Positions 3,988 through 22,427 of a stretch of DNA of 34,767 nucleotides are shown piece by piece. This DNA comes from a virus. The stretch's first letter is position 1. Each line of letters starts with the position of its first letter. The position numbers and the translations under genes were made by a program. The DNA is taken from IMG/VR virus record IMGVR_UViG_3300031658_000045, positions 1 through 34,767 of that record. One strand, given 5' to 3'. The notes under the pieces were generated by a model. That model saw only the letters and a program-made list of their open reading frames with translations, had not been told where the DNA came from and did no database searches.

Positions 3988-6591
3988 ATGGCTGTCTTTT
4001 CAATAAAATCTTTCGGTGGAATCGCACCTGTTGTTCCTCCGCGTTATCTTCAAGATAACCAAGCACAGACAGCCATGAACTGCCCTGTGTTTCAAGGGAG
4101 CATCCAAGCCATTGCTGACCTCGGCGCATCGGTAGCAGACCTACCCAAGACAGGTACGATCAAGTCTCTGTACCGCTACGGACAGGACACGTTATCTGAC
4201 AACAACTACTGGTTTCATTGGCCTGCCGATGTTGACGTGTGCCGCAGTCAAATCGCTGGAGACGTCTCTGAATGGACGTTCTTTACGGGCGATGGTGGCC
4301 CTAAAGCCACGTACAACTCTCTGGCTCTCAGTGGCAGTAATTACCCCGCTGCTACACGACCTTTAGGCATCCCTGCGCCTACTGCACCAGCGGCGGCATC
4401 CGCTGACACCTTCACGTCTGCAAGTCACTCGGCCACTATTACACTGACGTCGTCTCACGTAGAAAGCTTGACCACACAGTACGGTATTTCGATAAGCACC
4501 GTGGCGGACAATGCGTCTGATTACACAGTCGTAACCTTGTCAGGAACCATTACAGCGGCGAGCGTTGTCTCGGCTATTAATACTGCGTTGTCGTCCACAA
4601 TCACTGCTTCAGAAGAAACAGGCACTGTAAAAATCGACACAGTTGCCACCGGAGCTGCGGCTAAGCTATTTGTGAAGTTTCAAACAGGCACTAAAGCAAA
4701 CACAGAGGGTACGTTTTCTTATGCCAGCCCAGTTACAGTTGACGGGGTAGTTATTACTCCTCCCGATCTTCAAGCTACAGGTGCGGCGGTTACATCTGCG
4801 TATGTCGTAATTACAGATGCTGAAATCACCTCTATCACATCGGGCGACAAAATATTTGTAAGCACTAACATCGGCACCCATGTAGACGACGCAGTCTACA
4901 CATTTTCTGGAACTCTCACGGCAGCGGCTTTTGCAACGTACTTAGACACTCAGCTTGGTACGCACGTCGAAGCAACCGCTTATGGCTCATCCGTAGTTCT
5001 TACCCCCGACCAAAGCGGCACAGGCGCGAGCGGTTCTATTACCTACCGCCGCACAGTAGGCACTGTCGTAACCACTACCATAGAAAACTCAGGGTCTGAT
5101 TCAGAAAGCCCCGCCAGAATATTTGTTACTCAGACTAATGTGGACGCGATGGAAGGCCGGTATCTGGCGATTGAAATAGATGGCGAAGAACAAATAGTAC
5201 CTGTGTTCAGCCCCGCCTACACCAGCCAGTTTAGCGCGCTATCTGGTTTTGGTGCGACGGCTGTCAACTACGGGTCGGTTACTCCGTTTGCCGTTGTCAC
5301 AACCACGTCGGTTGGCACGGAAGCAACGTTACGGATAAGAACAGGTGACTACCCCACACAGGCCACTTTCTCACTGCAACAATCCGTCGGTTACGTCGAC
5401 GAAGACGATACACTTGAAACGCGCGTCTACACATACACATTCGTAAACAAGGAAAGCGGGTTCGAATTTGAGTCTGCTCCAGCTGAAGCCTCAAATACAG
5501 TGGATGTGCGAGACGGTCAAACGGTGTCGCTATCAGGGTTTTCTTCGGTCCCTAGCGGCTACGTTACTAGCCACAAAAGAATTTATCGCGCCGTAAGTGG
5601 TGTGTTTCTTTTTGTCTCTGAAATCGCAGCGGCGGATGCTAACTTCACAGATAACGTTAAACCAGATGCGCTAGGCGAAGAGGTTCCTACACTTACATGG
5701 TCTGCACCCCCACAAACTTTGACGGGTCTAACTAATCTACCAAACGGTCTTATGGCGGGGTTTAGTGGGCGAGATATATATTTCTGCGATCCGTACCACC
5801 CGCACGCTTGGCCTGAGCAGTATATCCAGACTGTGGACTACCCTGTTGTGGGGTTGGGGCGCATGGATACTACTCTGGCGGTTTTAACTAAAGGCACACC
5901 GTACCTCATCCAAGGAGCTAACCCGCTCAACATGTCGGTGGTAAAAGCTGACATCGAGCAAGCCTGTGTATCCAAACGAAGCATTGTCAGTTTAATGGGC
6001 GGAGTAATGTACGCAGCGCCAGATGGGTTAATGCTCCTTTCCCCCGGTGGTTCGCGCATTGTTACTGAAAACCTGTTTGACTTTGCGCAGTGGCAGACCT
6101 TCTTCAAGCCAGAGTCGATCCACGCCTATCAACACGATAACCAGTATATTGCTTTCTACGACAACGGTACTCAGAGTGGTGGGTTTATCTTCGATGTGCG
6201 CAGTGGGCAGTTTATCCTGCACGATATTTACGCTGACGCGGGCTACCATGATCTCCTAAGAGACAAGTTGTTCTTAGCGGTTAACGACAGCGGCAACAAA
6301 GTCAAACCTTGGGGCAGCGGAAGTACAAAATCTTACATCTGGCGGTCTAAAAAGTTTTCACTCCCACAGGTGATGGGCTTTTCTTGCGCTCAGCTGGAAG
6401 CCGAAGCCTACCCCATGACGCTGAAATTCTACCTAGATAACACGTTGTACCACACGCAGACGGTGCAGAACCGCAACCCGTTTAGGCTCCCTGCCAAAGT
6501 TGGACGCGACCTAGAAATGCAAGTCGAGGGGTCGAACGAAGTGTTTTCGCTCTCTGTCGCCAACAGTATGACGGAGCTTGCCAGTGGCTAA
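3988..6591 (+). CDS. Tail nozzle-like / stem structural protein (podovirus type)
   Basis: An 867-residue protein. The start FSIKSFGGIAPVVPPRYLQDNQAQTAMNC resembles the 'F.GG..P...PR.L....A..A.NC' start of T7 gp12-like nozzle and related tail proteins. The C-terminal 300 residues have a beta-propeller look: PQTLTGLTNLPNGLMAGFSGRDIYFCDPYHPHAWP, VGLGRMDTTLAVLTKGTPYLI, MYAAPDGLMLLSPGGSRIVTE. Between about residues 140 and 475 is an unusual Ser/Thr/Ala-rich insertion with three repeats (~100 residues each), probably Ig-like decorations. It likely forms the lower tail tube that carries fibres. It starts one base after the endolysin stop. Confidence 0.65.
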   Translation: MAVFSIKSFGGIAPVVPPRYLQDNQAQTAMNCPVFQGSIQAIADLGASVADLPKTGTIKSLYRYGQDTLSDNNYWFHWPADVDVCRSQIAGDVSEWTFFTGDGGPKATYNSLALSGSNYPAATRPLGIPAPTAPAAASADTFTSASHSATITLTSSHVESLTTQYGISISTVADNASDYTVVTLSGTITAASVVSAINTALSSTITASEETGTVKIDTVATGAAAKLFVKFQTGTKANTEGTFSYASPVTVDGVVITPPDLQATGAAVTSAYVVITDAEITSITSGDKIFVSTNIGTHVDDAVYTFSGTLTAAAFATYLDTQLGTHVEATAYGSSVVLTPDQSGTGASGSITYRRTVGTVVTTTIENSGSDSESPARIFVTQTNVDAMEGRYLAIEIDGEEQIVPVFSPAYTSQFSALSGFGATAVNYGSVTPFAVVTTTSVGTEATLRIRTGDYPTQATFSLQQSVGYVDEDDTLETRVYTYTFVNKESGFEFESAPAEASNTVDVRDGQTVSLSGFSSVPSGYVTSHKRIYRAVSGVFLFVSEIAAADANFTDNVKPDALGEEVPTLTWSAPPQTLTGLTNLPNGLMAGFSGRDIYFCDPYHPHAWPEQYIQTVDYPVVGLGRMDTTLAVLTKGTPYLIQGANPLNMSVVKADIEQACVSKRSIVSLMGGVMYAAPDGLMLLSPGGSRIVTENLFDFAQWQTFFKPESIHAYQHDNQYIAFYDNGTQSGGFIFDVRSGQFILHDIYADAGYHDLLRDKLFLAVNDSGNKVKPWGSGSTKSYIWRSKKFSLPQVMGFSCAQLEAEAYPMTLKFYLDNTLYHTQTVQNRNPFRLPAKVGRDLEMQVEGSNEVFSLSVANSMTELASG
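4435..5400 (+). repeat. Three divergent protein-level repeats inside the nozzle-like gene
   Basis: Repeat 1 (about 4435-4730) has ITLTSSHVESL...ISISTVADNASD...LSGTITAASVVSAINTAL. Repeat 2 (about 4801-5090) has VVITDAEITSI...IFVSTNIGTHVDD..YTFSGTLTAAAFATYLDTQL. A weaker third copy (about 5116-5400) has IFVTQTNVDAM. They are seen at the amino-acid level only; the DNA has diverged. They read as tandem beta-sandwich inserts. Confidence 0.5.
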
Positions 6592-10931: not shown

Positions 10932-11354
10932 TTGTTAGTTTTTGACAACAAGAAACGGGTCGGCGATTGGGTCGCCAATCGGGTAGGTCAAACGACCTCA
11001 TGGGGCGACTTTTACGCAATGGGCGCTGAGAAAAAAGGTGAACTTGCTGCTGGGGTCGTGCTGAACAACTTCACTCCTTGCAGCGCAACGGTCCATCTTG
11101 CGGTTAGCACACCCACGAAGAGCTTGTCGGAGCTGCTGGACCACGCTTTTTTATACGCGTTCAAGACCTGCAAGCTCCGAAGGTTAACTGGGTTGGTAGA
11201 GGCGAACAATGCAAAGTCACTCAAAATTATTAAGCGCCTTGGCTTTGTCCAAGAGGGCGTCATGCGTGAAGCTGGCACAGACGGGCAAGACATCATTGTC
11301 CTTGTTTTGTGGCCTGAAAATTACCGGAAAGGTCGACTAAATGGGCAAAAGTAA
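10932..11354 (+). CDS. GNAT-family N-acetyltransferase
   Basis: A 140-residue protein beginning at TTG (an in-frame TGA at 10905 blocks longer starts and there is no in-frame ATG). The start LLVFDNKKRVGDWVANRVG fits phage GNATs. The core shows GELAAGVVLNNF (strand beta4 region), then LRRLTGLVEANNAKSLKIIKRLGFVQEG, where N-A-K-S...RLGF is the usual C-terminal acetyl-CoA-binding part. It should transfer acetyl from acetyl-CoA to an amine; the substrate is unknown. It sits at the head of the internal-virion operon, where it might modify a virion or host protein. It overlaps the next gene by 14 bases. Confidence 0.75.
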   Translation: MLVFDNKKRVGDWVANRVGQTTSWGDFYAMGAEKKGELAAGVVLNNFTPCSATVHLAVSTPTKSLSELLDHAFLYAFKTCKLRRLTGLVEANNAKSLKIIKRLGFVQEGVMREAGTDGQDIIVLVLWPENYRKGRLNGQK

Positions 11355-12381
11355 TCCAACCCCGGCCCCCGACTACCAACCGCTTGCCGACGCAAGCCGT
11401 GCGGCGATGGAAAGTCAAACGCAGTTAGGTAGAGATCAGCTTGCTTTCGCTCGGGAACAGTATGACCGTTCCGCTCCGATCCTTGAGGGTATAGCTAACC
11501 AGCAGATGACTGCGCAATCCGAGCAAATGGCTCAAGCTCGAGATTATTATAATTACCAAAAAGACACGTACCGCCCTCTGGAACGAGGGCTTGTAGCGGA
11601 CGCCCAGAGATTTAATACAGACGCGTACGCAAATGAGTTAGCATCTAAAGCCTCGGCGGACGCAGGTTTGGCCTTTGGTCAGGTCCAAGCGCAGAACCAA
11701 CGAGCATCTCGTTCAATGGGCGTAAACCCCAACTCAGGTCGGTTTGCTGGTATGCAGAACGCCACAGGATTACAACAAGCCGCCGTTCGGGCTAACGCTA
11801 TGACAGGGGCTAGAAACCAAGCGCAGCAGATGGGTTACGCACGTAAGCTCGATGCAGCTGGTCTCGGTCGCGGGCTTGCTGGTGCCTCAGCAGCTGCCTA
11901 CGGCGGCGCGTCCAACGCGGGTTCCATGGCTGGCGGAAACGCACAATCGGCGGGTCAAAACTATATGGGCAACTCAGCTATCGGCGCTGGCACTATAAAT
12001 GCGGGTTACGGACAAGGTATATCTGGTCTCGGCAGTGTGCTGAACAACTCTGTGAACCAGTATATCAATACCCAAGACAGCACTCTTGGTGACATCGGCG
12101 CTATCGCTGGTGCGGGTGCATCTATCTACGCGACGTCAGACGAACGGTTGAAAGACAACATCAGGGAAGTCGGTGTAGACCAACGCACGGCTCTGACACT
12201 TTACGAGTTTAATTACAAAGAAGGGTTCGGTGATCCAAAAATCCGCTACCGTGGTGTAATGGCCCAAGAGGTTGAGCTTAGCTACCCAGACGCAGTCTTC
12301 ACCCGTACAGACGGCGTGTTCAACGGCTACAAAACAGTCGACTACGGTATGCTCGGCATACAAATGAAAGAGGTCGCGTAA
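11341..12381 (+). CDS. Virion protein with C-terminal S74-type intramolecular chaperone domain
   Basis: A 346-residue protein. Residues ~15-170 are helical and Gln/Ala-rich; ~175-235 are Gly/Ala/Ser-rich. The last 80 residues, from SDERLKDNIREVG (S266, D267) through LYEFNYK, RYRGVMAQEVE and TVDYGMLGIQMKE, match the peptidase S74 / intramolecular chaperone domain that trims itself off trimeric fibres (S-D of SDERLK at the cleavage site). It is found on phage fibres and on some podovirus internal or tail proteins. The stop overlaps the next start (TAATG). An internal core or adsorption role is inferred from neighbours. Confidence 0.75.
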   Translation: MGKSNPTPAPDYQPLADASRAAMESQTQLGRDQLAFAREQYDRSAPILEGIANQQMTAQSEQMAQARDYYNYQKDTYRPLERGLVADAQRFNTDAYANELASKASADAGLAFGQVQAQNQRASRSMGVNPNSGRFAGMQNATGLQQAAVRANAMTGARNQAQQMGYARKLDAAGLGRGLAGASAAAYGGASNAGSMAGGNAQSAGQNYMGNSAIGAGTINAGYGQGISGLGSVLNNSVNQYINTQDSTLGDIGAIAGAGASIYATSDERLKDNIREVGVDQRTALTLYEFNYKEGFGDPKIRYRGVMAQEVELSYPDAVFTRTDGVFNGYKTVDYGMLGIQMKEVA

Positions 12382-13907
12382 TGGCACGTAAATCACAGTG
12401 GGCGCAATTCGCTGAAAACTTCAAAAGTACTTACGAGATTGGGCAGAAACTACAGCAAGGTTATGCAACCAAACAAGTAATGGACGACGAAAAGTTTATG
12501 TCCGAAGACGGTGGCGCGGGGTATGGCCTAAAAGGCGACAACCTCGAAAGAGCGCGGTATAAAGCTCTTGGTGACATCGCCACGAAGTATGGCGACACTG
12601 CCGGGGGTTTAGCCAATAGAACGGCGCTTGCTGACTTAAACGCTAAAGACCGTGATAACAGGATAGACGCTAACAACGAGCAGTACACCACCGCGCTGAG
12701 AGGTTTGATTGCGCAGAACGCTGCTCTAGCCAACATAAGAAACACCGATTCGGGCACGGGCCTAAACAAGGCTAACACTGCGGACGTACTAGCGATGACG
12801 CCTGAGAGGGTTGCCAATCTGCGAGCGGACACCCAAGATGCGCACACTGGAATAGCGAAACAAAATGCTGAAACCGAAGCGATAAAGCTAGCAAACACTA
12901 GCACAACAAACCGACAAGGTTCTGCGGACGCAGCTGTTATCGCGGAAAATAAACTAAGATTAGAACAGTTTAGAACCGACCTTACGAACGTAGATTTGCG
13001 AGATGCGGCTCAAGCAGAACAGTTTAGAGCGCAAGCGGCACAGTATCGAGCCGATGGTGCAACTGCGGAAGCAAATATAATGGAGACCCACGCGTTTTTA
13101 GACTACTCCAATAGATTTTCAAACGGAGAGTTCAAGACAGGCAAAGACGCAGCGGAAGCCTACGTCAATGTGGTGGCTCAGTTCGACCCGATGAAAGCCA
13201 CGGAACTTAGCAAGAATTACACCGAATCTGAAATTGCCGCGATAGCCAACCAAGGGATAAAGTTTCAGTCGACGGTCTCTAGTTTAGTCCAGAAAAATGA
13301 TTTTGAAGGTATTCGAGCGTTTTTCGATGAACAGAACGGTGACGCGACTGGAGTTACTCTCGAGATAGACTCAGAAACTGGTGGGGTCAAAATGTTCCAA
13401 ACCGGTGCCGAGGGCGAGGTCATCCCGATTATGGATGCTCCTAACGCCGCAGAGGCAAGAGCGCAGCTTGAGAGTGTTACAACTTACGGTAACGCTGCAT
13501 CATACGCAGAGAGTTTGTTTGCCCGCCGCAAAGGTGAGGCGGGGCTTGGGAAGGTTGCGGCTGAGACTGCGGTTCACAACGCTCAAGCGGATGATCTAAA
13601 GTCTCAAGACGGGGTGGACAAAGTAGCAATTGAGAAGATGGACGCAGAAATTGCGAAGATCAACAATCAAGTTAAAAACAGCGACCAGGCAGACTCTGAA
13701 ACAGTTAGACAAGAAGGCTTACAGCGTTTCTTGGGCGGCGACACTTACGCCTACATGCAAGCCGACAACCCCGAGGGAGCTAAAACTCTGCTCCAGACCT
13801 TTAAATACCAAACTGGCATGTTGAACATGGCCGCGCTCAAAGAAGGCGGTGTCAGTATGGAAGCTTTCTTAAATATGACTCCCGAAGACCAAAGACAATT
13901 TGAGTAG
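12381..13907 (+). CDS. Helical internal virion protein, 508 aa
   Basis: An Ala/Gln/Asn/Glu-rich protein with long predicted helices (for example AEAIKLANTSTTNRQG, AQAEQFRAQAAQYRADGATAEA, DKVAIEKMDAEIAKINNQV) and no membrane segment, signal or catalytic motif that I can see. Its place between the S74-domain protein and the giant protein, in a tight operon, matches the internal core proteins of podoviruses (T7 gp15-like position). These are ejected with the DNA to form a channel across the envelope. Function is inferred from position and composition only. Confidence 0.6.
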   Translation: MARKSQWAQFAENFKSTYEIGQKLQQGYATKQVMDDEKFMSEDGGAGYGLKGDNLERARYKALGDIATKYGDTAGGLANRTALADLNAKDRDNRIDANNEQYTTALRGLIAQNAALANIRNTDSGTGLNKANTADVLAMTPERVANLRADTQDAHTGIAKQNAETEAIKLANTSTTNRQGSADAAVIAENKLRLEQFRTDLTNVDLRDAAQAEQFRAQAAQYRADGATAEANIMETHAFLDYSNRFSNGEFKTGKDAAEAYVNVVAQFDPMKATELSKNYTESEIAAIANQGIKFQSTVSSLVQKNDFEGIRAFFDEQNGDATGVTLEIDSETGGVKMFQTGAEGEVIPIMDAPNAAEARAQLESVTTYGNAASYAESLFARRKGEAGLGKVAAETAVHNAQADDLKSQDGVDKVAIEKMDAEIAKINNQVKNSDQADSETVRQEGLQRFLGGDTYAYMQADNPEGAKTLLQTFKYQTGMLNMAALKEGGVSMEAFLNMTPEDQRQFE

Positions 13908-13922
13908 AAAGCGGAAAAACTT

Positions 13923-16900
13923 ATGGCGCTTACAGCAGGACAACAAGCAGCAGTAGACCGTATGAACGGCGGGTCGACGCGGGTAATTGATGATGATGAA
14001 GAAAACCAGTCAGTACTAACCCAAGGCCAACGGGACGCTATTGAGCGTATGAACTCGGGTCGTTCTGCGCCTGCCCCACAACAAGACGACGACGCGGGAT
14101 CGTTTGACCCGTTCGCCAATTACAAACAAATGTACAACATGACGGTTGGTGCAGCCAGCGCTGTTCCAAAAGCTGCGGGGGCGCTAGTAGGGCTGGGCAC
14201 TTATGTTAAGGGGCTAAACAAGATTGCGGACCCAGTGGCCGAAGGCTTGTACGCGGCTGGTGATTTTATAGACAACACGCTGATGACCCAAGATCAGCTA
14301 GATAAGAAAGCCAAACTCCAAACCGAGCTACAAACCGCTGTTCAAAACATGCCTCCTTTTCCAGAAGATGCGTCAGTCGGCGACAGGATAAAGTTTGTCT
14401 CTGACTACGTTATAAATCAAGGGGGAGCCGCTGGAACTTTCCTCGCAGAAAACCCAACCCAGATAGCTAACTTCGTTGCTGAAACTATACCTCATATTGT
14501 TCTGGGTGGCGCTGTCGGTAAAGGGGCAAAAGCCGTAGCCGTAGGCGCAACGGGTATAACAAAACCTACCAGTTTAATAGGACGCGCAGCAAACAGGGCA
14601 GCAAACGCTGGCGCTGGTACGTTCGGTGCCGTCGGTGAAGGTGTGATAGCCGCCGGAGACGTCGGCGCTGGTACCGCGATTGAGCAACGAGCCCAAGGTA
14701 ACTTCGACTATTCCCCAGACCGGTTGTACGGGCTGTTAGCCGCTCCAACTACGGCCTTGATAGGTCGTGCGGGAAGCAAGTTCTCGGGGATAGCCGACGC
14801 CGACAGTTTAGCGACGGGTCTAGCTGCTAACGCAGCTAAAGATTTGGTCAAACTTGGGGCGCTAAAGAAAGTTGCCAAGGGCACAGTCGTCGAGGCTGGA
14901 GAGGAATTTCTTCAGAGCGGTACGGAGCAATCATTTTCTAACTTAGCCAACGACAAGCCTGTTTACCAAGACGTCGGTAGTTCAGCGGTAATTGGGGCCG
15001 CAACAGGCGCAGGGTTGGGCGCGGGTGTTAACACAGTGTCAGCTTTGCCTAGTGAGACGGGAACTCAGTTGCCCTCGAGCATAGTCGAAGAAGCGGCTCC
15101 CTCGATAGAAACCGAACTGGCGGAAGCGCGGGTTGAAAACGAACGGGCTCTCGCAGAGGCAAAGCAAGAAGCCGAGGCAGTCGACACTGCGCGTGAAGCA
15201 GCTGCGCCGTCGTTCATACAGTATGACAAATTTGTGGAAGCCAGAGTTAGCCAAGTAGACGCAAAAAACAAACTAGACCTTGAAGACCCAAACTCAGAGA
15301 TCAGTACGGCGTTTAAAGCGCATTTGAACGAATACAGAGCAAGCGCTAGTCAGGCAGACAAAGCAAAATCGTATAGTGAGATAGGTCTTAGTAAGATAAA
15401 AACAGACTTTTTAAAATCTGTTAAGGAAGGGAATACTGACACAGAGGCGGACGCTGCTGCCTACATGGAAGCACTAGACAACTACGCCGCCGAAATAGCA
15501 GCCAACCCGCCAATCGCGGAAGACCCAGCGGCCATCGCGGCGAGAGAGCGCCAAGCTATTATAGATAAACCAGTTAAGGGTACGGTCCAAGCTATTGAAA
15601 AAGCCGAAGCGTTATACGGAAAAGACTGGGTCGACAGTGGCAAGTATGACGACTTAGCGGCGGTCGTTAACGGAAACAACTACAGGCAGAAAAGCTTCAA
15701 CGCTGCCATCGACAAAATTGAGAACCCGCCTATAGATGTTAACGCGTCAACAACTACGAGAGAGCAAAAGCTCTTAGCGGTACGTCAGGCTGTCGGGAGA
15801 GTGTCCGAAGGACTGACGGGGAAGAACGACAAAGCGGTCTTTGATACGTTCTCCCAAGCTATATTTAACTTTGAGGGGGACAAGTACTTAGAGCAACGCG
15901 TTCTGGCAAACAAGAAAGACGGTACTGGGGCTAAGAGCTTTACGCAGTTGGCAAAAGACGCTGGCGTAAAAGACGCATCCTCGGCCAAAACAGTTCTAAA
16001 AAGAATAGGCCCGAAACTAGCTGAAGCCCTTGGTGTAACGACAGAACAACTTCCTGCGTTGCTGGCGTCGCTTCGCCCGGTAAACGTAGTAAGCGCCCAA
16101 GACGGTGATACTGCTCAACTCGATCAACAATCTGCCGCAGAAGACGCCGACGTTAATCAGGCTGGGGATAACGTTGCGAACGACGAAACTGGTGCGTCAC
16201 TAGATGCAGTAACTGGCACAAGTGAGGCGGCTACAACTGAACGCGCAGGCGTACTTAAAAACATGAAAGCCGTCGACGCCCCGATCCAAAGAAGTGCAAA
16301 TTTAGCAGACGCGGACGAGATAACAGACGCTTCCGAAGCCCTCGATAAAGCAGAGTTTGGGGTAGGTGGGGGCTTTGGAACAAAAGCCAGTGCGAACCAA
16401 GGTGCCTACGACGGGTTTGAAGATGTAAAAGAGTTTACCAAAGCCCGTTCGAACGAAGTAAACGAGGTCAACGAAGAACGAGTTGAAGCGGCGAAAGTTA
16501 ATTACGAAGCCCAAAGAAAGGCCATGATCGCCGAATTTGGTGCCACTGCGTTAAAGATGTGGAGAGACGGCGTCTCAGATGGCGGACCCAGTTTTGGCCA
16601 AATAAGCACAATAGATCAAGCCGACTGGGTGGGTTCCGTGATGGAACACGCGTCGACTAACGACGACGCTCAGCTTGCAGAAGACCTGCGCAATATAGAA
16701 ACCTTGTACGACGCCGCGAACGATGGCGTAACTATGGAGAACACTGATGTCCAAAACAACGAAGAAGATGAAGCCAGCGGACCTGATACCAGTACTAAAG
16801 GAAGCGAAGGCAGTGGGGTTGAGACTAGGAGCAGCAGAAACACGGATGCTAAACCGCGCAGAACAACAAAGCCAGCAACAGCAAAAGAAGTAACACCGCC

Positions 16901-19900
16901 TGATAGCAGCAAACCTAAGAGCTTTTCTAGAAAACGCACGATAACTAACGCTACTACTACGTCAAACTTACAAGTAGTTGCGGACGGGCTGTTTGAAGAC
17001 TTTGTCGCTATGAACGACAAGGACTCGGAGACACTTACAGTCGAACCGGGTGGGATTTACAGCCCCCTCCAGCTACATAAAACTGTCAAAGACGCGTTCC
17101 GGGCACTCGGTGGGTCTGTTTCCCTCGAGGAGCTTAAAAAAGCGCAAGGGGTTATTGATCCGAGGGACGGAAAACGGGCTCACTTTATCGCAGAGAACAT
17201 AAACGTTGGAACTGAAGCGGCGGTTATTGCGCACGAAGTTGGAGTTCACCTCGGGCTAGAGAATAAATTACTTTCTAACAAAGAAGTAGTGGCGCTGTCG
17301 CAGGAAGTTAACAAGTGGAGCAGCCTAGACGAAACCGCTGTCGAACGGCAAATACATGACGCCGTAGTGGGACGGATCGCTTTTGCTCGTATGCATGGGC
17401 TGGTCGAGGAACAGGTGCCTATTGAGATTATTGCGTACGCCGTTGAAGAGGCTGTAGCGCGGGGGGTTACGCCAAGGGCAGACGAAATAGCCAATGCAGC
17501 TGGGTGGCTGTCTAAAGTTCAAGACTTTTTCTCAGAGTTAACTAACCGATGGTTTAACGACAAAAACCCTGATCCGTTTTTTGGTCTTCCACGAGGCTCC
17601 GATCAAGCAATCTTTCAAGCATCAGAGCTTGTTGCCCTTGCCCAAGGCGCTGCTCAAAGTGCGATGCAAAAGGTTGCTGTAGAAAAAGGTGCTGTGTCGA
17701 AAAACAAAATTGACGTTATGGCTTACTACGCGAACACCTCAAAAGCAAAAGTTGCGGCAAACATCAATAATAAACGCGCCGTACTGTTTGAAACTAACGA
17801 TCAAGATGAAAAAGCCGACCGAGGTGCAGAGTTTTTTCTATGGGGTGATGATTCGAAATTTGGTACCAAAACAAACATTAGTACCGAAGCAAATTTTGAT
17901 TTTCCCGGCGACATGGCAATGGCCGTGTACGGTGACGTAACTACTGATGAGGGAGTGGCCAGTCCAATATTGACAGTTGTCTTAGACAGAGCAGAGTATA
18001 ACAACGCGCCCGGTGAATTTGTGCCTAACACCTACCTGCTTACGATCATCGGCCCAGAAGGCAAAGTTGTCGAAGACATAGGAATACCCGAAGATTTCGA
18101 CATCACTACGACTAAAGACATTGACGGGGCTGATTGGGTTCGTTTGGAAGGTGTCCGTCACCGAGACGTCGTTCGTGTACTCACAGAAGCCAGACGGCGC
18201 ATGACACGTTATAATAATGGTCGAGTACCTAACATTGTGTACAACCGCGTAACGGGTGCAGCCGCTGCTAACACAAACACTGGCCGAGTGGGTTCCAAGA
18301 CCGACAAACAATTGTTCAAACGGTTCTCGTTCAAGGATCAGACGTCGATACCAGCTGTTAAGAAGAAAGCTAACCGCGAGTGGGTCCGTGATAATATGGG
18401 TGGTGACGGCGCGGTCGACATCTATGACAACACGGTTGAAATTGCTAAACAAGCGGCGTCCTCGCTAAAGTTTGTCCACAACATTGTTCGTGATGCACGA
18501 AAAGATATGCCGAGTGTAGGCAAGTGGTGGGACACAATGATCGCCGCAGACGTTACCCGGAACGAGATCAAGCAGTCGTTCTCTGACGTGCAAAAACAGG
18601 TTCGTGCTCTAAAGAAGGGCCGTTTGGAAACGGTCAACAAGTTCTTAGGAGACTCTACATTTAACCAGAAGTGGGGCTACGACCCTAAAGTTTTCCACCC
18701 AGATTTGTTCAGTAAAAAGACAGTCGCTGTCGATAAAGTAGCACAGGTACAGTTTAACCGTCTTAGTGAAACTGAGAAAACACTCGTCGCAGACATCTTT
18801 GCGCACGGCGAGCGGATGCGTCAACGGAAAGTTGCACTCGCTAAAAAGTTAGGGGTGTCCGCCAAGTTCTTTAACGACTCTTCGCTGGAAGGTCCGTATT
18901 CTCCGCTAAAAAGATTTGGTAATAACGTGGCAGAACTCAAGTCTGCTAGGTACATGGCAGCTGAAACAGCTGCGGAGGCTGAAGGCTCTACAAAAGCTCA
19001 AAAAGATTTGTTTGAAAAACTAAAGTCCGACGGCGACCATTACGTCATAAGTTTCTTTGACACGAAAGGTGCCGCAAAAGCATTTGTCGACCAAAACAAA
19101 AAGACCTTTTCTTTCAGCCAGACTACAAAAAGGGCTCCTAACTTAGAATCCGACCGGGTCTCAAACCCAGAGGTTTACGAAAAGGTCATGGCTGCTTTGG
19201 CTGCTAACGACAGTTCTAGTATGGACGCTAAGTCTAAAACTGCGTTTCGTGAGATGGTGCGAGACATGTACTTCCAGTCGATGGATGAGCGTAGCGCTAG
19301 AGTGTCTGGGGCGAGACGTCTGAACCGGGCAGGGTACGAACAGAACATGGTCCGGTCGTTTTTAAGTCACGCTAAAGCAGAAGCTGGCCTCATTGCCCAG
19401 ATGGAAAACGGTACTGAAATAAATACGGCTCTCGCTGAAGCTGCTAAAGAGGTTAAGATAAACGGCAACCGTGATGAGGAAAGACAGCGGGTCTTTAACA
19501 CGATTACGAGCCACTACCAGAAAGTACTAACGCGCAGCGACACACCGATCCAAGACCGTATAGCGACGGCGAACTCGGTTTACATGCTGCTTACCAGCGC
19601 CGGGTACCACCTCACAAACGCAACGCAGCCGACTATGGTTACAGTCCCTCGTATCGCCGGAGACTTTAATGACTACAGCGGTACTTGGAGCGCGTTGTTC
19701 AGGGGCTATAAGGTAGCTCTGTCAGCTTCTAAGATAGGTTTAAACCTAGAAACTGAAATTAATTTCGACAAGGTTCCGGTTAAATACCACTCCTTGCTCA
19801 AAGAACTACAAGACCGTCAGATACTAGATCAGGGTATGGAAGAGGATGGAGCGTTCGACCGTTTTAACACGGGCTGGGAAGGGCTTAACAAAGCTTCTGA

Positions 19901-21095
19901 TGTTCTGGGGACTACCACTCGTAAGCTCTATAATGTCGCCAAGTTTGTAGAATCACAAAACCGTATTTCTTCTGCCATAGCAGCGTACGACATGGCTTTG
20001 TCTAACCCGACGGCCAACACGTCTAAAACGCTAAAGAACTCACCAGAAGGACGCGCACAGCAGTACGCAATAGACGTTGTCGAAGACACCCAAGGTAACT
20101 TCTCGGAGTTGGACGCCCCACTTCTTATTAAACAACTTAGCTCTGTCAAGCTTGCGGTACAGTACCGCAAGTATCAGTTGCTGATGGCGTGGCACTATAC
20201 AAACGCGTTTAACGAAGCTTTTAGGGGTGATACCAAAGAAACTAGAGCAGCTGGCAAACGAATATTAGGTTACTCTTTAGTCCACGCGGCGATGGGTGCT
20301 GGCGTTGTTGGTGTGCCGGGCGCGTCTCTGGCTTTCTGGGTGTCGACTTTCTTCAACGGTGGCGAAGACGAGCCACAAGATTTAGAGCGATGGATCAAAG
20401 AGCACATCGACGACGGGTTACTGGGGGATGTGTTATCGAAGGGCATGTTTACAACTGTCGGGCTCGATTTGACCACTAAGTTATCTCAAGACAAGATAAT
20501 GAGTCCGCTGCCATATGTTGACTTAACGCCGGGTGCCGCTGGGGCATCCGACTTAATAATGGGCTTGGCTGGTCCGTTTGGGACTACGGCCACTAACTTT
20601 TTCCGTGCTTGGGAATACTTTGCACAGGGCGATACGTTGAAGGGTATAGAATACTCTACACCAAAAGGCATCCGAACTGCGGTCGAAAGCTATCGTCTGG
20701 GCACCGAAGGGCTAACTACCAAGAGCGGCGTAACGCTCGTGAAACCCACAGAGTTTGACGTAACAAGTCTTTTGGTAAACGCGCTGGGTTTACCAGCGAC
20801 AGAGGTCAACAAGATAAAATGGACCAGAGGACAGCAGTACGAACTGACACAGTACTTCAACAAGGAGTCTTCCAGAATCCGCAAAAACTACATCGAAGCT
20901 ACTAGAGCTAGAGACCGCGACGGCCAAGCCGAAGCTAGGGAAGCGTTTCGGGAAAACGAGAAGGCCAAAGCTAGGGTTCGTCCGTTCTTCAATAATACTC
21001 GAGGCGTTCTGGCAAGACAAAGCATGAGTGAGTTGATGAAAGCCCCCAGAAACAGATCAAGGCTCGAGCGTAAGGAACAAAACAAACTTAAATAA
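13923..21095 (+). CDS. Giant internal virion protein with HExxH metallopeptidase-like site
   Basis: A 2390-residue protein. The N-terminus has two copies of LTxGQxxAxxRMN.G (residues ~3-15 and ~32-44), then an Ala/Gly-rich amphipathic stretch (~60-250). Long charged helices follow to ~1000. Residues 1098-1110 (AAVIAHEVGVHLG) hold HEVGVH (H1104, E1105, H1108), a zinc-peptidase HExxH; E1168 or E1175 in EIIAYAVEEA could be the third ligand. A beta-rich part (~1265-1400) is not recognised. Residues ~1887-1905 (YMLLTSAGYHLTNATQPTM) and a hydrophobic stretch at ~2115-2145 recall LPD38-type regions of large polyvalent phage proteins. It is probably ejected into the host, like N4 vRNAP or T7 gp16. 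No RNA polymerase motif is visible. Confidence 0.75.
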   Translation: MALTAGQQAAVDRMNGGSTRVIDDDEENQSVLTQGQRDAIERMNSGRSAPAPQQDDDAGSFDPFANYKQMYNMTVGAASAVPKAAGALVGLGTYVKGLNKIADPVAEGLYAAGDFIDNTLMTQDQLDKKAKLQTELQTAVQNMPPFPEDASVGDRIKFVSDYVINQGGAAGTFLAENPTQIANFVAETIPHIVLGGAVGKGAKAVAVGATGITKPTSLIGRAANRAANAGAGTFGAVGEGVIAAGDVGAGTAIEQRAQGNFDYSPDRLYGLLAAPTTALIGRAGSKFSGIADADSLATGLAANAAKDLVKLGALKKVAKGTVVEAGEEFLQSGTEQSFSNLANDKPVYQDVGSSAVIGAATGAGLGAGVNTVSALPSETGTQLPSSIVEEAAPSIETELAEARVENERALAEAKQEAEAVDTAREAAAPSFIQYDKFVEARVSQVDAKNKLDLEDPNSEISTAFKAHLNEYRASASQADKAKSYSEIGLSKIKTDFLKSVKEGNTDTEADAAAYMEALDNYAAEIAANPPIAEDPAAIAARERQAIIDKPVKGTVQAIEKAEALYGKDWVDSGKYDDLAAVVNGNNYRQKSFNAAIDKIENPPIDVNASTTTREQKLLAVRQAVGRVSEGLTGKNDKAVFDTFSQAIFNFEGDKYLEQRVLANKKDGTGAKSFTQLAKDAGVKDASSAKTVLKRIGPKLAEALGVTTEQLPALLASLRPVNVVSAQDGDTAQLDQQSAAEDADVNQAGDNVANDETGASLDAVTGTSEAATTERAGVLKNMKAVDAPIQRSANLADADEITDASEALDKAEFGVGGGFGTKASANQGAYDGFEDVKEFTKARSNEVNEVNEERVEAAKVNYEAQRKAMIAEFGATALKMWRDGVSDGGPSFGQISTIDQADWVGSVMEHASTNDDAQLAEDLRNIETLYDAANDGVTMENTDVQNNEEDEASGPDTSTKGSEGSGVETRSSRNTDAKPRRTTKPATAKEVTPPDSSKPKSFSRKRTITNATTTSNLQVVADGLFEDFVAMNDKDSETLTVEPGGIYSPLQLHKTVKDAFRALGGSVSLEELKKAQGVIDPRDGKRAHFIAENINVGTEAAVIAHEVGVHLGLENKLLSNKEVVALSQEVNKWSSLDETAVERQIHDAVVGRIAFARMHGLVEEQVPIEIIAYAVEEAVARGVTPRADEIANAAGWLSKVQDFFSELTNRWFNDKNPDPFFGLPRGSDQAIFQASELVALAQGAAQSAMQKVAVEKGAVSKNKIDVMAYYANTSKAKVAANINNKRAVLFETNDQDEKADRGAEFFLWGDDSKFGTKTNISTEANFDFPGDMAMAVYGDVTTDEGVASPILTVVLDRAEYNNAPGEFVPNTYLLTIIGPEGKVVEDIGIPEDFDITTTKDIDGADWVRLEGVRHRDVVRVLTEARRRMTRYNNGRVPNIVYNRVTGAAAANTNTGRVGSKTDKQLFKRFSFKDQTSIPAVKKKANREWVRDNMGGDGAVDIYDNTVEIAKQAASSLKFVHNIVRDARKDMPSVGKWWDTMIAADVTRNEIKQSFSDVQKQVRALKKGRLETVNKFLGDSTFNQKWGYDPKVFHPDLFSKKTVAVDKVAQVQFNRLSETEKTLVADIFAHGERMRQRKVALAKKLGVSAKFFNDSSLEGPYSPLKRFGNNVAELKSARYMAAETAAEAEGSTKAQKDLFEKLKSDGDHYVISFFDTKGAAKAFVDQNKKTFSFSQTTKRAPNLESDRVSNPEVYEKVMAALAANDSSSMDAKSKTAFREMVRDMYFQSMDERSARVSGARRLNRAGYEQNMVRSFLSHAKAEAGLIAQMENGTEINTALAEAAKEVKINGNRDEERQRVFNTITSHYQKVLTRSDTPIQDRIATANSVYMLLTSAGYHLTNATQPTMVTVPRIAGDFNDYSGTWSALFRGYKVALSASKIGLNLETEINFDKVPVKYHSLLKELQDRQILDQGMEEDGAFDRFNTGWEGLNKASDVLGTTTRKLYNVAKFVESQNRISSAIAAYDMALSNPTANTSKTLKNSPEGRAQQYAIDVVEDTQGNFSELDAPLLIKQLSSVKLAVQYRKYQLLMAWHYTNAFNEAFRGDTKETRAAGKRILGYSLVHAAMGAGVVGVPGASLAFWVSTFFNGGEDEPQDLERWIKEHIDDGLLGDVLSKGMFTTVGLDLTTKLSQDKIMSPLPYVDLTPGAAGASDLIMGLAGPFGTTATNFFRAWEYFAQGDTLKGIEYSTPKGIRTAVESYRLGTEGLTTKSGVTLVKPTEFDVTSLLVNALGLPATEVNKIKWTRGQQYELTQYFNKESSRIRKNYIEATRARDRDGQAEAREAFRENEKAKARVRPFFNNTRGVLARQSMSELMKAPRNRSRLERKEQNKLK
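15737..15752. promoter_or_regulatory. Intragenic operator-like site
   Basis: TGTTAACGCGTCAACA inside the giant-protein gene, a full match to TGTTnACnnGTnAACA. It codes for part of the protein, so it may be chance, but it fits the consensus as well as the intergenic copies. Confidence 0.35.
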
Positions 21096-21437: not shown

Positions 21438-22427
21438 ATGGCGTCTATCAAGAAACTAAAAACAGGCATGTGGCAAGCACAAGTTCGAATGGACGGTGTA
21501 CGCGCGTCTAAGACCAAGCCAACAAAAACAGAAGCTAAAGACTGGGCTGCTGCAAAAGAGCATGAAATTAAAACCTCTGTCGTGGTTAAGACGACGTCGT
21601 CCACTTTTGGAGAAGCAGCGCTCCGCTACGAAATGGAATTTAGCCGTGGTAAAAAAGGTGTGAAGTGGGAGCAAGGACAGATCAGTCGGTTACTCAAGAT
21701 GCCAATCGCTAAGATAAACATACAGAAAATCGAGCGTTCTGATGTCCGTTCGTGGAGAGATGCTCGCCTTAAAAAAGTTCAAGGTTCCACAGTTAACCGA
21801 GAGTGGAACTTGCTGTCGCATATATTTTCAACTGCCAGAGACGAGTGGGAACTTATCGAAGCTAACCCGATGACGGGGGTGAAGCGGCCAAAAGAAAACC
21901 CACCACGGGATCGTCTTATATCAGACAGCGAGATTGAGCAGATTTGTTTAGCCGCCGGTTTTGATGAGACTACGACGACGACGGTACAGGGAGAGGTGTG
22001 TGTTGCGTTTCTCTTCGCGATTGAGACCGCCATGAGGGCAGGAGAGATTTGTCAGATGGTGTGGGGTAACGTCGACACTGAAAAACGAACAGTGTTCTTA
22101 CCCTCAGAAATTACAAAGAACGGTAAGAAAAGAACAGTAGCGCTTTCTGCACGGGCGGTGGAGTTACTGGCTTTACTGCCGCCTACGAACCGCGCCACAT
22201 GCTTTAGGTCAAACAGTAAACAACTGGATGCCACCTTCAGAAAACTCAAAAGTAAGACGACCGTAGTTGACTTGCATTTTCACGATACGCGCCACGAAGC
22301 GATTACGCGGCTGTCCAAGAAGCTACCTGTGCTGGCGTTGGCCCGAAACGTGGGGCACACGAATATTAACCAGTTGATGACTTACTACAACGAAGACGCC
22401 GAAGACCTCGCGAAGCTCCTAGAATAA
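21438..22427 (+). CDS. int: Tyrosine recombinase / phage integrase
   Basis: A 329-residue protein. The N-terminal ~50 residues (GMWQAQVRMDGVRASKTKPTKTEAKDWA) look like an arm-binding domain, followed by a helical core-binding domain (~55-150). The catalytic domain contains ETAMRAGEI (R200), the beta-hairpin EITKNGKKR (K227 or K230), HDTRHEAITRL (H282, R285), GHTN (H307) and MTYYNEDAEDLA (Y316 the likely nucleophile): the full R-K-H-R-H-Y set. It should insert the circular phage genome at a host attB site. Purine-rich AGGCGGGG precedes the ATG. Its 3' end overlaps by 9 bases the end of the excisionase-like gene on the other strand. Confidence 0.95.
   Translation: MASIKKLKTGMWQAQVRMDGVRASKTKPTKTEAKDWAAAKEHEIKTSVVVKTTSSTFGEAALRYEMEFSRGKKGVKWEQGQISRLLKMPIAKINIQKIERSDVRSWRDARLKKVQGSTVNREWNLLSHIFSTARDEWELIEANPMTGVKRPKENPPRDRLISDSEIEQICLAAGFDETTTTTVQGEVCVAFLFAIETAMRAGEICQMVWGNVDTEKRTVFLPSEITKNGKKRTVALSARAVELLALLPPTNRATCFRSNSKQLDATFRKLKSKTTVVDLHFHDTRHEAITRLSKKLPVLALARNVGHTNINQLMTYYNEDAEDLAKLLE

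What the first reader, a model, noticed from the sequence alone, without database searches (positions are those of the whole stretch)
13923..21095. 2390-residue internal protein with HEVGVH zinc-peptidase signature
The HExxH at residues 1104-1108 lies in an otherwise predicted helical protein that also has an LPD38-like C-terminal region. Such polyvalent proteins are thought to be injected with DNA and act against host defences or the envelope. A metallopeptidase delivered by the virion could cut a host protein at entry. The region ~1265-1400 next to it is beta-rich and unassigned.
Basis: partly seen in the sequence, partly recalled or inferred. Interest (0 to 1): 0.55.

Follow-up and report, generated by a model that had tools for sequence, protein, structure and literature searches.

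The report
Injected phage protein with swappable cargo
A giant phage protein, probably packed in the virion and injected with the DNA, carries a protein-cutting-enzyme-like domain of a known but uncommon type beside a slot where related phages hold different domains or none, which suggests that it may cut itself to release what it delivers.

Summary
The 2390-aa ORF (13923-21095) is real, but the motif was misread. Residues 1104-1109 are HEVGVH, i.e. HExxxH; the protein has no HExxH. The motif is still meaningful: it sits in a domain (about 1051-1210) found in 107 of 120 loci, with a Glu (E1168) conserved in 98 of 98 rows. The domain folds confidently (pLDDT 87.6), with HExxxH and E1168 on two helices; its best fold matches, modest in score, are a zincin. 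Ten matched cultured-phage homologues carry HExxH at the same site. HEXXXH peptidases in polyvalent proteins are already published (PMC5512222). The C-terminus is not LPD38. Not expected: the beta-rich region (1228-1480) fills a slot between peptidase and conserved C-terminus; in 27 relatives the slot is empty (13), holds this module (6) or an ADP-ribosyltransferase-like insert (8). In the close relative L121 the peptidase is strongly diverged and the module absent. Short [FY]S tags cluster at the slot's end. Most likely mechanism: an ejected polyprotein that processes itself to release cargo (confidence about 0.5; no cleavage shown). The beta module has no family match; a GNAT-like fold is only hinted.

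The parts
13923..21095 (+). ORF of the 2390-aa DarB-like polyvalent, predicted internal virion protein
   Evidence: residues 1633-2350 match phrog_10089 DarB-like antirestriction, E 3.5e-24
17073..17552 (+). HExxxH zincin-like metallopeptidase (MPTase) domain, residues 1051-1210
   Evidence: profile match; model of residues 1036-1225, pLDDT 87.6, pTM 0.81
17232..17249 (+). HEVGVH, residues 1104-1109: candidate zinc ligands H1104 and H1109, candidate general base E1105
   Evidence: in helix 63-78 of the model
17424..17426 (+). E1168, candidate third zinc ligand, in helix 127-144 of the model
   Evidence: 98 of 98 rows with a residue; invariant in alignments A2 and A4
17604..18362 (+). beta-rich cargo module, residues 1228-1480, between MPTase and C-terminal region; begins with a linker helix (ELVALAQGAA) whose counterpart precedes empty and filled slots in most of the other rows printed
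   Evidence: also in L021, L023, L067, L079, L115, L120 and L123, L165
18318..18332 (+). KRFSF, residues 1466-1470: [FY]S tag at the end of the slot
   Evidence: [FY]S at this boundary in 19 of 23 non-redundant rows, expected 3.3
16917..16931 (+). KSFSR, residues 999-1003: possible tag before the MPTase domain (weak)
   Evidence: 18 of 43 rows, expected 6.0; not reproduced in a second set
18378..21092 (+). conserved C-terminal region, residues 1486-2390, shared with some DarB-like phage proteins; not LPD38
11341..12381 (+). neighbouring virion structural / DNA ejection-like protein (346 aa)
   Evidence: phrog_8003 E 1.1e-46, phrog_4287 DNA ejection protein E 5.9e-10
3988..6591 (+). internal virion protein homologue (867 aa)
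   Evidence: phrog_511 E 4.2e-145

Best explanation
The ORF encodes a DarB-like polyvalent protein that is packed in the virion and ejected with the DNA (inferred from neighbours and a cultured homologue). Residues 1051-1210 are a zincin-like metallopeptidase of the HEXXXH variant, with H1104, H1109 and E1168 as zinc ligands and E1105 as base (inferred from conservation, helix placement and fold; metal and activity not shown). It acts mainly on its own polypeptide: during or after ejection it cuts in the linkers around the neighbouring slot, freeing the cargo domain (here the beta module, residues 1228-1480) from the C-terminal region and perhaps from the N-terminal part. Cargo differs between phages with the same scaffold. 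Shown: domain, conserved residues, slot, alternative contents, tag enrichment at the slot's end. Inferred: proteolysis, cut sites, timing, exchange by recombination, cargo function.
For: Conserved HExxxH + E1168; confident model with both on helices; the top five VIA entries are all anthrax lethal factor, Z 5.9-6.6, next unrelated entry Z 4.7. 10 of 10 cultured-phage rows that match the profile have HExxH and the same Glu. Of 27 loci with MPTase and the same C-terminal region, 13 slots are empty, 6 hold the beta module and 8 hold other inserts, ART-like by Pfam (6) or by blastp to those (2). Window versus L121: the C-terminal 1501-2390 is 60-85% identical and 541-720 is 77-90%, but 961-1260 is 16-40% and the beta module is missing. 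[FY]S at the slot's end: 19 of 23 vs 3.3 expected; after the MPTase in rows without this C-terminal region 11 of 24 vs 4.7, and in a later-fetched set 8 of 13 vs 2.8. JC1 gp69 in virions (PMC9144972 passages). Iyer 2017 proposes self-processing for such MPTases (passages).
Against: No cleavage data. N4 virion RNAP, with a zincin-like HExxH domain, is packaged unprocessed according to PMC5512222. The upstream tag did not replicate (4 of 17 vs 2.4; 3 of 10 vs 1.7). L121 has no [FY]S at either place. [FY]S occurs 18 times in the window protein, so its two sites prove nothing alone. The tag was first noticed in the data first tested, and it is also present in empty-slot rows, so it may simply be the conserved start of the next region. 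Fold Z is under 8 and Foldseek found nothing at E<1.
Confidence: 0.48

Rival explanations
1. The metallopeptidase is itself the effector: it is injected and cuts a host protein (defence, envelope or regulatory), and the slot is unrelated to its proteolysis.
For: The best fold match is the lethal factor peptidase domain, which cuts host proteins (recalled). PMC5512222 lists effector use as an option (passages). The MPTase occurs with the slot empty in 13 of 27 loci.
Against: The domain keeps a fixed place beside a slot with differing contents, with tags at the slot's end, which a host-targeted protease would not need. Sister MPTases can have different slot contents: L084 filled, L006 and L098 empty.
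Confidence: 0.23
2. The domain is a structural or packaging element that keeps the zincin fold and perhaps bound zinc but does not cut during infection.
For: In N4 virion RNAP the region with the zincin-like HExxH domain is needed for encapsidation and the protein is packaged unprocessed (PMC5512222 passages). The N4 structure preprint names the motif in domain C1; the passages my terms found mention no proteolysis (PMC12633501).
Against: Both His and the catalytic Glu are kept in L121 and L123, which were found without the motif pattern, and in the 10 matched cultured rows; the third Glu is kept in both motif forms.
Confidence: 0.21
3. HEVGVH is a chance match in a helical scaffold.
For: Neither Pfam nor PHROGs has a model that matches the window's domain (NCBIfam and PADLOC not searched).
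Against: Expectation 0.013 per protein; conserved E1168 and domain in 107 of 120 loci.
Confidence: 0.03

Closest known systems
HEXXXH zincin-like MPTases of polyvalent proteins (Iyer et al. 2017, PMC5512222)
   Same: HEXXXH motif, Glu in a following helix, located in giant phage or mobile-element proteins; [quoted passage not shown]
   Different: The window's beta module, the slot census and the tags were not in the passages I saw. The paper's alignments were not available, so membership in one of its clades is untested
DarB-like proteins of Bcep22-like podoviruses and relatives (JC1 gp69, Parlo, LASTA, ZX1, POI1126)
   Same: Homologous MPTase domain; in ZX1, SopranoGao, LASTA and POI1126 also the same C-terminal region; JC1 gp69 is virion-associated
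   Different: They carry HExxH and are larger (about 3760-4840 aa from the records); JC1 gp69 has an LPD38-type region and not the window's C-terminal region
Other HExxxH metallopeptidases: DPP III (M49), TldD, MATCAP/TMCP
   Same: HExxxH fits an extra residue by helix distortion in TldD and DPP III (PMC5810440 passages); MATCAP chains are among the weak Foldseek hits (E 2.5 and above)
   Different: No sequence relation found; TldD uses a Cys as third ligand; precedent for the motif only
ART-PolyVal (PF18760)
   Same: Lies in the same slot in relatives (L044, L058 above cut-off)
   Different: The window's module shows no ART match
N4 virion RNA polymerase C1 domain
   Same: Zincin-type motif in an ejected giant protein (PMC12633501 passages)
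   Different: HExxH; no such slot mentioned in the passages seen

Membership tests
Zincin-like MPTase of polyvalent proteins | HEXXH, or HEXXXH in the variant set, on a helix | tested here: met
   HEVGVH at 1104-1109 in helix 63-78 of the model; the HEXXXH set is described in PMC5512222
Zincin-like MPTase of polyvalent proteins | conserved Glu on a second C-terminal helix | tested here: met
   E1168, 98 of 98 rows, helix 127-144; two further helices lie between the two
[quoted passage not shown]
   three strands (14-17, 41-43, 51-54) and the two C-terminal helices are predicted, but the early helices lie between strands 1 and 2; lethal factor is the best fold at a modest Z 6.6, rmsd 4.3, 140 aligned
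Zincin-like MPTase of polyvalent proteins | zinc binding and peptidase activity | not testable with these tools
Canonical HExxH zincins | HExxH | tested here: not met
   no HE..H in the 2390 residues
LPD38 (PF18857) | match to the Pfam model | tested here: not met
   no match at E<=1; no hit with an LPD38 profile built from these loci, hhalign probability 0.9%
DarB-like phage proteins | homologous C-terminal region and place among virion genes | tested here: met
   phrog_10089 E 3.5e-24; 18 phage records by tblastn, 20.9-22.3% identity
Polyvalent proteins | several unrelated effector domains in one injected polypeptide | tested here: inconclusive
   one enzyme-like domain supported; the cargo's function is unknown; injection inferred
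ART-PolyVal (for the beta module) | match to the Pfam model | tested here: not met
   no ART family among matches of the 7 members at E<=10
GNAT acetyltransferases (for the beta module) | GNAT fold and CoA-binding RxxGxG/A loop (loop recalled) | tested here: inconclusive
   VIA: HAT1 Z 5.8, and about 28 of the 50 rows are acetyl- or acyltransferases by title, many of them one enzyme (SpeG); under the level to trust. RxxG invariant in 7 of 7 rows (R1407, G1410) but without the last G/A; no Pfam match, no profile match to the Parlo/ZX1 GNAT
M49 dipeptidyl peptidase III | HEXXGH plus second Glu motif and its fold | not tested
   only the HExxxH form is shared; details recalled

The most novel reading that the evidence does not exclude
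These phages inject a self-cutting polyprotein: an HExxxH peptidase recognises short [FY]S tags that mark domain boundaries and releases exchangeable domains (ART-like, GNAT-like, or the new beta module) inside the host. It would be a modular cargo system with a built-in protease and address tags, and the window carries a cargo type that matched nothing in Pfam or PHROGs.
Probability: 0.25. Interest if true: 0.72.

Novelty: new variant of a known kind. Interest (0 to 1): 0.45.

Why it matters
The HEXXXH peptidase itself is a published kind. The slot turns a general proposal (MPTases process polyvalent proteins) into a test: the same scaffold with no, ART-like or beta cargo, and candidate cut tags at a fixed place. 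A one-residue difference between HExxH and HExxxH within one family also offers a clean case for how an active-site helix tolerates an extra residue. If self-release is right, such phages carry a plug-in delivery protein whose slots can be mined for new host-directed enzymes.

Tried and rejected
HExxH as written: rejected. LPD38 C-terminus: rejected. H1108 as ligand: it is Val. E1175 as third ligand: less conserved than E1168 (74 of 97 against 98 of 98).

tblastn of residues 1039-1426 gave no phage or plasmid match at E<=1 and the first viral scan no relative; the motif pattern scan found the family. Of three other family members sent to the phage collection, L077 gave no match, L120 four records, L054 seventeen. 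Pfam and PHROGs gave nothing for the window's own domain; among 72 members the largest Pfam count was 2, one such family being DUF6782, putative metallopeptidase, best E 0.046; 44 of 72 hit phrog_873 (endolysin) and 23 of 72 phrog_10089. PDB sequence searches gave nothing below E 0.1. Foldseek gave nothing at E<=0.001 in PDB; BFVD gave one hit, E 7.8e-5, a phage protein named only by a large polyvalent protein associated domain. Beta module as ART: no match. As GNAT: fold hint only.

The upstream [FY]S tag was enriched in the first set and not in the second. Homology of the 508-aa neighbour with JC1 gp68 (510 aa, same place): not found.

Selection and dropping of rows: the pattern scan stopped at its limit (119 stretches), so HExGVHxG is conserved in those rows by construction; 13 of 120 loci had no domain match. 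Of 107 matching loci 74 remained after removing near-copies, and 71 of these plus the window went into A2 and A4 (three short or incomplete rows left out). Cultured phages: 9 loci were chosen by the C-terminal match (of 18 records, duplicates and near relatives left out) and 3 of these 9 match the MPTase profile; 7 were chosen by a match to the MPTase domain itself and 7 of 7 match it. The 10 matches are not independent: five are one genus (Lessievirus), three another (Lastavirus). Some of the 6 unmatched have HExxH elsewhere. Second set: 5 of 18 loci and 11 of 15 match the profile.

Full report
1. The observation. The frame 13923-21095 is open for 2390 residues in a virus record of 34,767 bases. 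The motif is H1104-E-V-G-V-H1109, which is HExxxH. A search for HE..H finds nothing in the protein. By composition 0.013 HExxxH would be expected.

2. It is a conserved domain. A profile grown from the window's domain finds it in 107 of 120 loci (these plus L121). Residues in the pattern are conserved by construction. E1168 is not in the pattern and is Glu in 98 of 98 rows with a residue there; Y1172 is Tyr in 88 of 98. L121, found with patterns from other parts of the protein, has HEVGGH and the matching Glu. The usual context of the Glu is (E/D)E.LAY.

3. Fold. Residues 1036-1225 with 71 relatives give pLDDT 87.6 and pTM 0.81. The motif lies in helix 63-78 and E1168 in helix 127-144, after three short strands. 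[quoted passage not shown] here the early helices lie between strands 1 and 2, so the fit is not exact. In VIA-align the top five entries are all anthrax lethal factor (Z 5.9-6.6, rmsd 4.1-4.4, 138-146 aligned) and the next unrelated entry has Z 4.7. Z below 8 is modest; PMC5512222 reached the same protein by HHpred for the N4 domain. Foldseek gave no hit at E<1.

4. HExxH relatives. Of 16 cultured-phage loci, 10 match the profile and these 10 have HEAFH or HELFH with the same Glu. Nine of the 16 had been chosen by the C-terminal region (3 match) and seven by a match to the MPTase domain (7 match); five of the ten are Lessievirus and three Lastavirus. A tree of 99 rows (89 HExxxH, 10 HExxH) needs one change between forms; the HExxH group is joined to 7 HExxxH rows at 99/94 support (the bootstrap had not fully settled). 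The root is unknown, so the direction is open. Keeping the third Glu across the switch supports a real metal site in both. Helix distortion by the extra residue has precedent in TldD and DPP III (PMC5810440 passages).

5. The neighbour looks like cargo. Profiles for the MPTase, the beta module (1228-1480) and the C-terminal region (1486-2390) match the window in that order. In 27 other loci with MPTase and this C-terminal region, 13 have 38-62 residues between them, 6 have the beta module and 8 have other inserts of 216-559 residues. Of the 8, Pfam ART-PolyVal matches 2 above its cut-off (L044 1.1e-23, L058 2.6e-20) and 4 below it (L017 7.2e-7, L103 2.2e-6, L093 9.8e-6, L084 0.004); L018 and L070 have no Pfam ART match and resemble other inserts by blastp. 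A linker helix of the type AQDIVDLAYGAA precedes empty and filled slots in most rows. In cultured phage Parlo a weakly matched GNAT domain follows the MPTase (PF13508, E 3e-4, below cut-off); its C-terminal region lay outside the stretch fetched.

6. Comparison with L121. Five of ten other window proteins tested match in the 25.9 kb fetched of this contig, at 49-90% identity. Along the giant protein, residues 541-720 are 77-90% identical, 721-960 45-70%, 961-1260 16-40%, the beta module is missing, and 1501-2390 are 60-85%. The first 540 residues are also only 20-38% identical, so low identity is not confined to the cassette. The two MPTase domains lie in different tree groups, though L121 is a long branch; the nine rows of the window's group carry the beta module. 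Exchange of an MPTase-cargo block is the simplest reading, not a proven one.

7. Tags. [FY]S occurs within 30 residues before or 10 after the C-terminal start in 19 of 23 non-redundant rows (expected 3.3, sd 1.6) and 20-60 residues before the MPTase in 18 of 43 (expected 6.0, sd 2.2); control pairs stayed near or below expectation. I saw the tag first in these data. In rows without this C-terminal region [FY]S follows the MPTase by 15-70 residues in 11 of 24 (expected 4.7, fraction of random draws 0.003), and in a later-fetched set in 8 of 13 (expected 2.8, fraction 0.002), one of the eight inside an ART-like stretch. At the C-terminal start of 6 further loci it is present in 5, by eye; two of these are near-copies. 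The upstream tag failed to replicate (4 of 17 against 2.4; 3 of 10 against 1.7). The window has KSFSR at 999-1003 and KRFSF at 1466-1470 among 18 [FY]S in all. L121 has neither.

8. Virion role. Genes at 3988-6591 and 11341-12381 match internal virion and ejection proteins. JC1 gp69, with the homologous MPTase, was found in CsCl-purified virions with 51 unique peptides (PMC9144972 passages). For the window's protein this is inference.

9. The beta module. Seen in the window and eight other loci, one from a Geobacteraceae genome assembly (L165). Pfam gave only noise at E<=10; no PDB sequence match below 0.1; no PHROG match of the window's row. In the two-domain model it resembles GNAT folds (HAT1 Z 5.8), too weak to rely on. 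An invariant RLxG and a basic helix (R1424-R1426) stand out.

10. Verdict. The enzyme type is known (PMC5512222, passages only). The beta module, the slot census and the tags were not in the passages I saw; I ran seven paper searches and make no wider claim that they are unpublished.

Noticed in passing
window 13929-14051: Two short N-terminal repeats, LTAGQQAAVDRM and LTQGQRDAIERM. L067 has a different tandem at its start (LPPGFVLQD twice). Possibly packaging tags.
   Followed up: no
window 10932-11354: Stand-alone GNAT-like protein (140 aa; phrog_4470 E 6.8e-31) upstream of the ejection genes, 84% identical in L121.
   Followed up: partly
L140 (Parlo) and L127 (ZX1): A similar GNAT-like stretch lies after the MPTase in Parlo but before it in ZX1, suggesting that cargo can sit on either side.
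   Followed up: partly
L161-L175: A strict HExGVH pattern found only 15 stretches in the genome collection; 11 of the 15 loci match the domain profile, 8 of these 11 from Pseudomonadota by record title.
   Followed up: partly
window 12381-13907: The 508-aa ORF just upstream has no PHROG or Pfam match at E<=0.01 and no match in the fetched stretch of L121, though the neighbours on both sides do.
   Followed up: no
window 21438-22427: Integrase gene directly after the giant protein; suggests a temperate phage.
   Followed up: no
alignment A2: 44 of 72 rows match phrog_873, annotated endolysin; the label may come from another domain of the same giant proteins.
   Followed up: no
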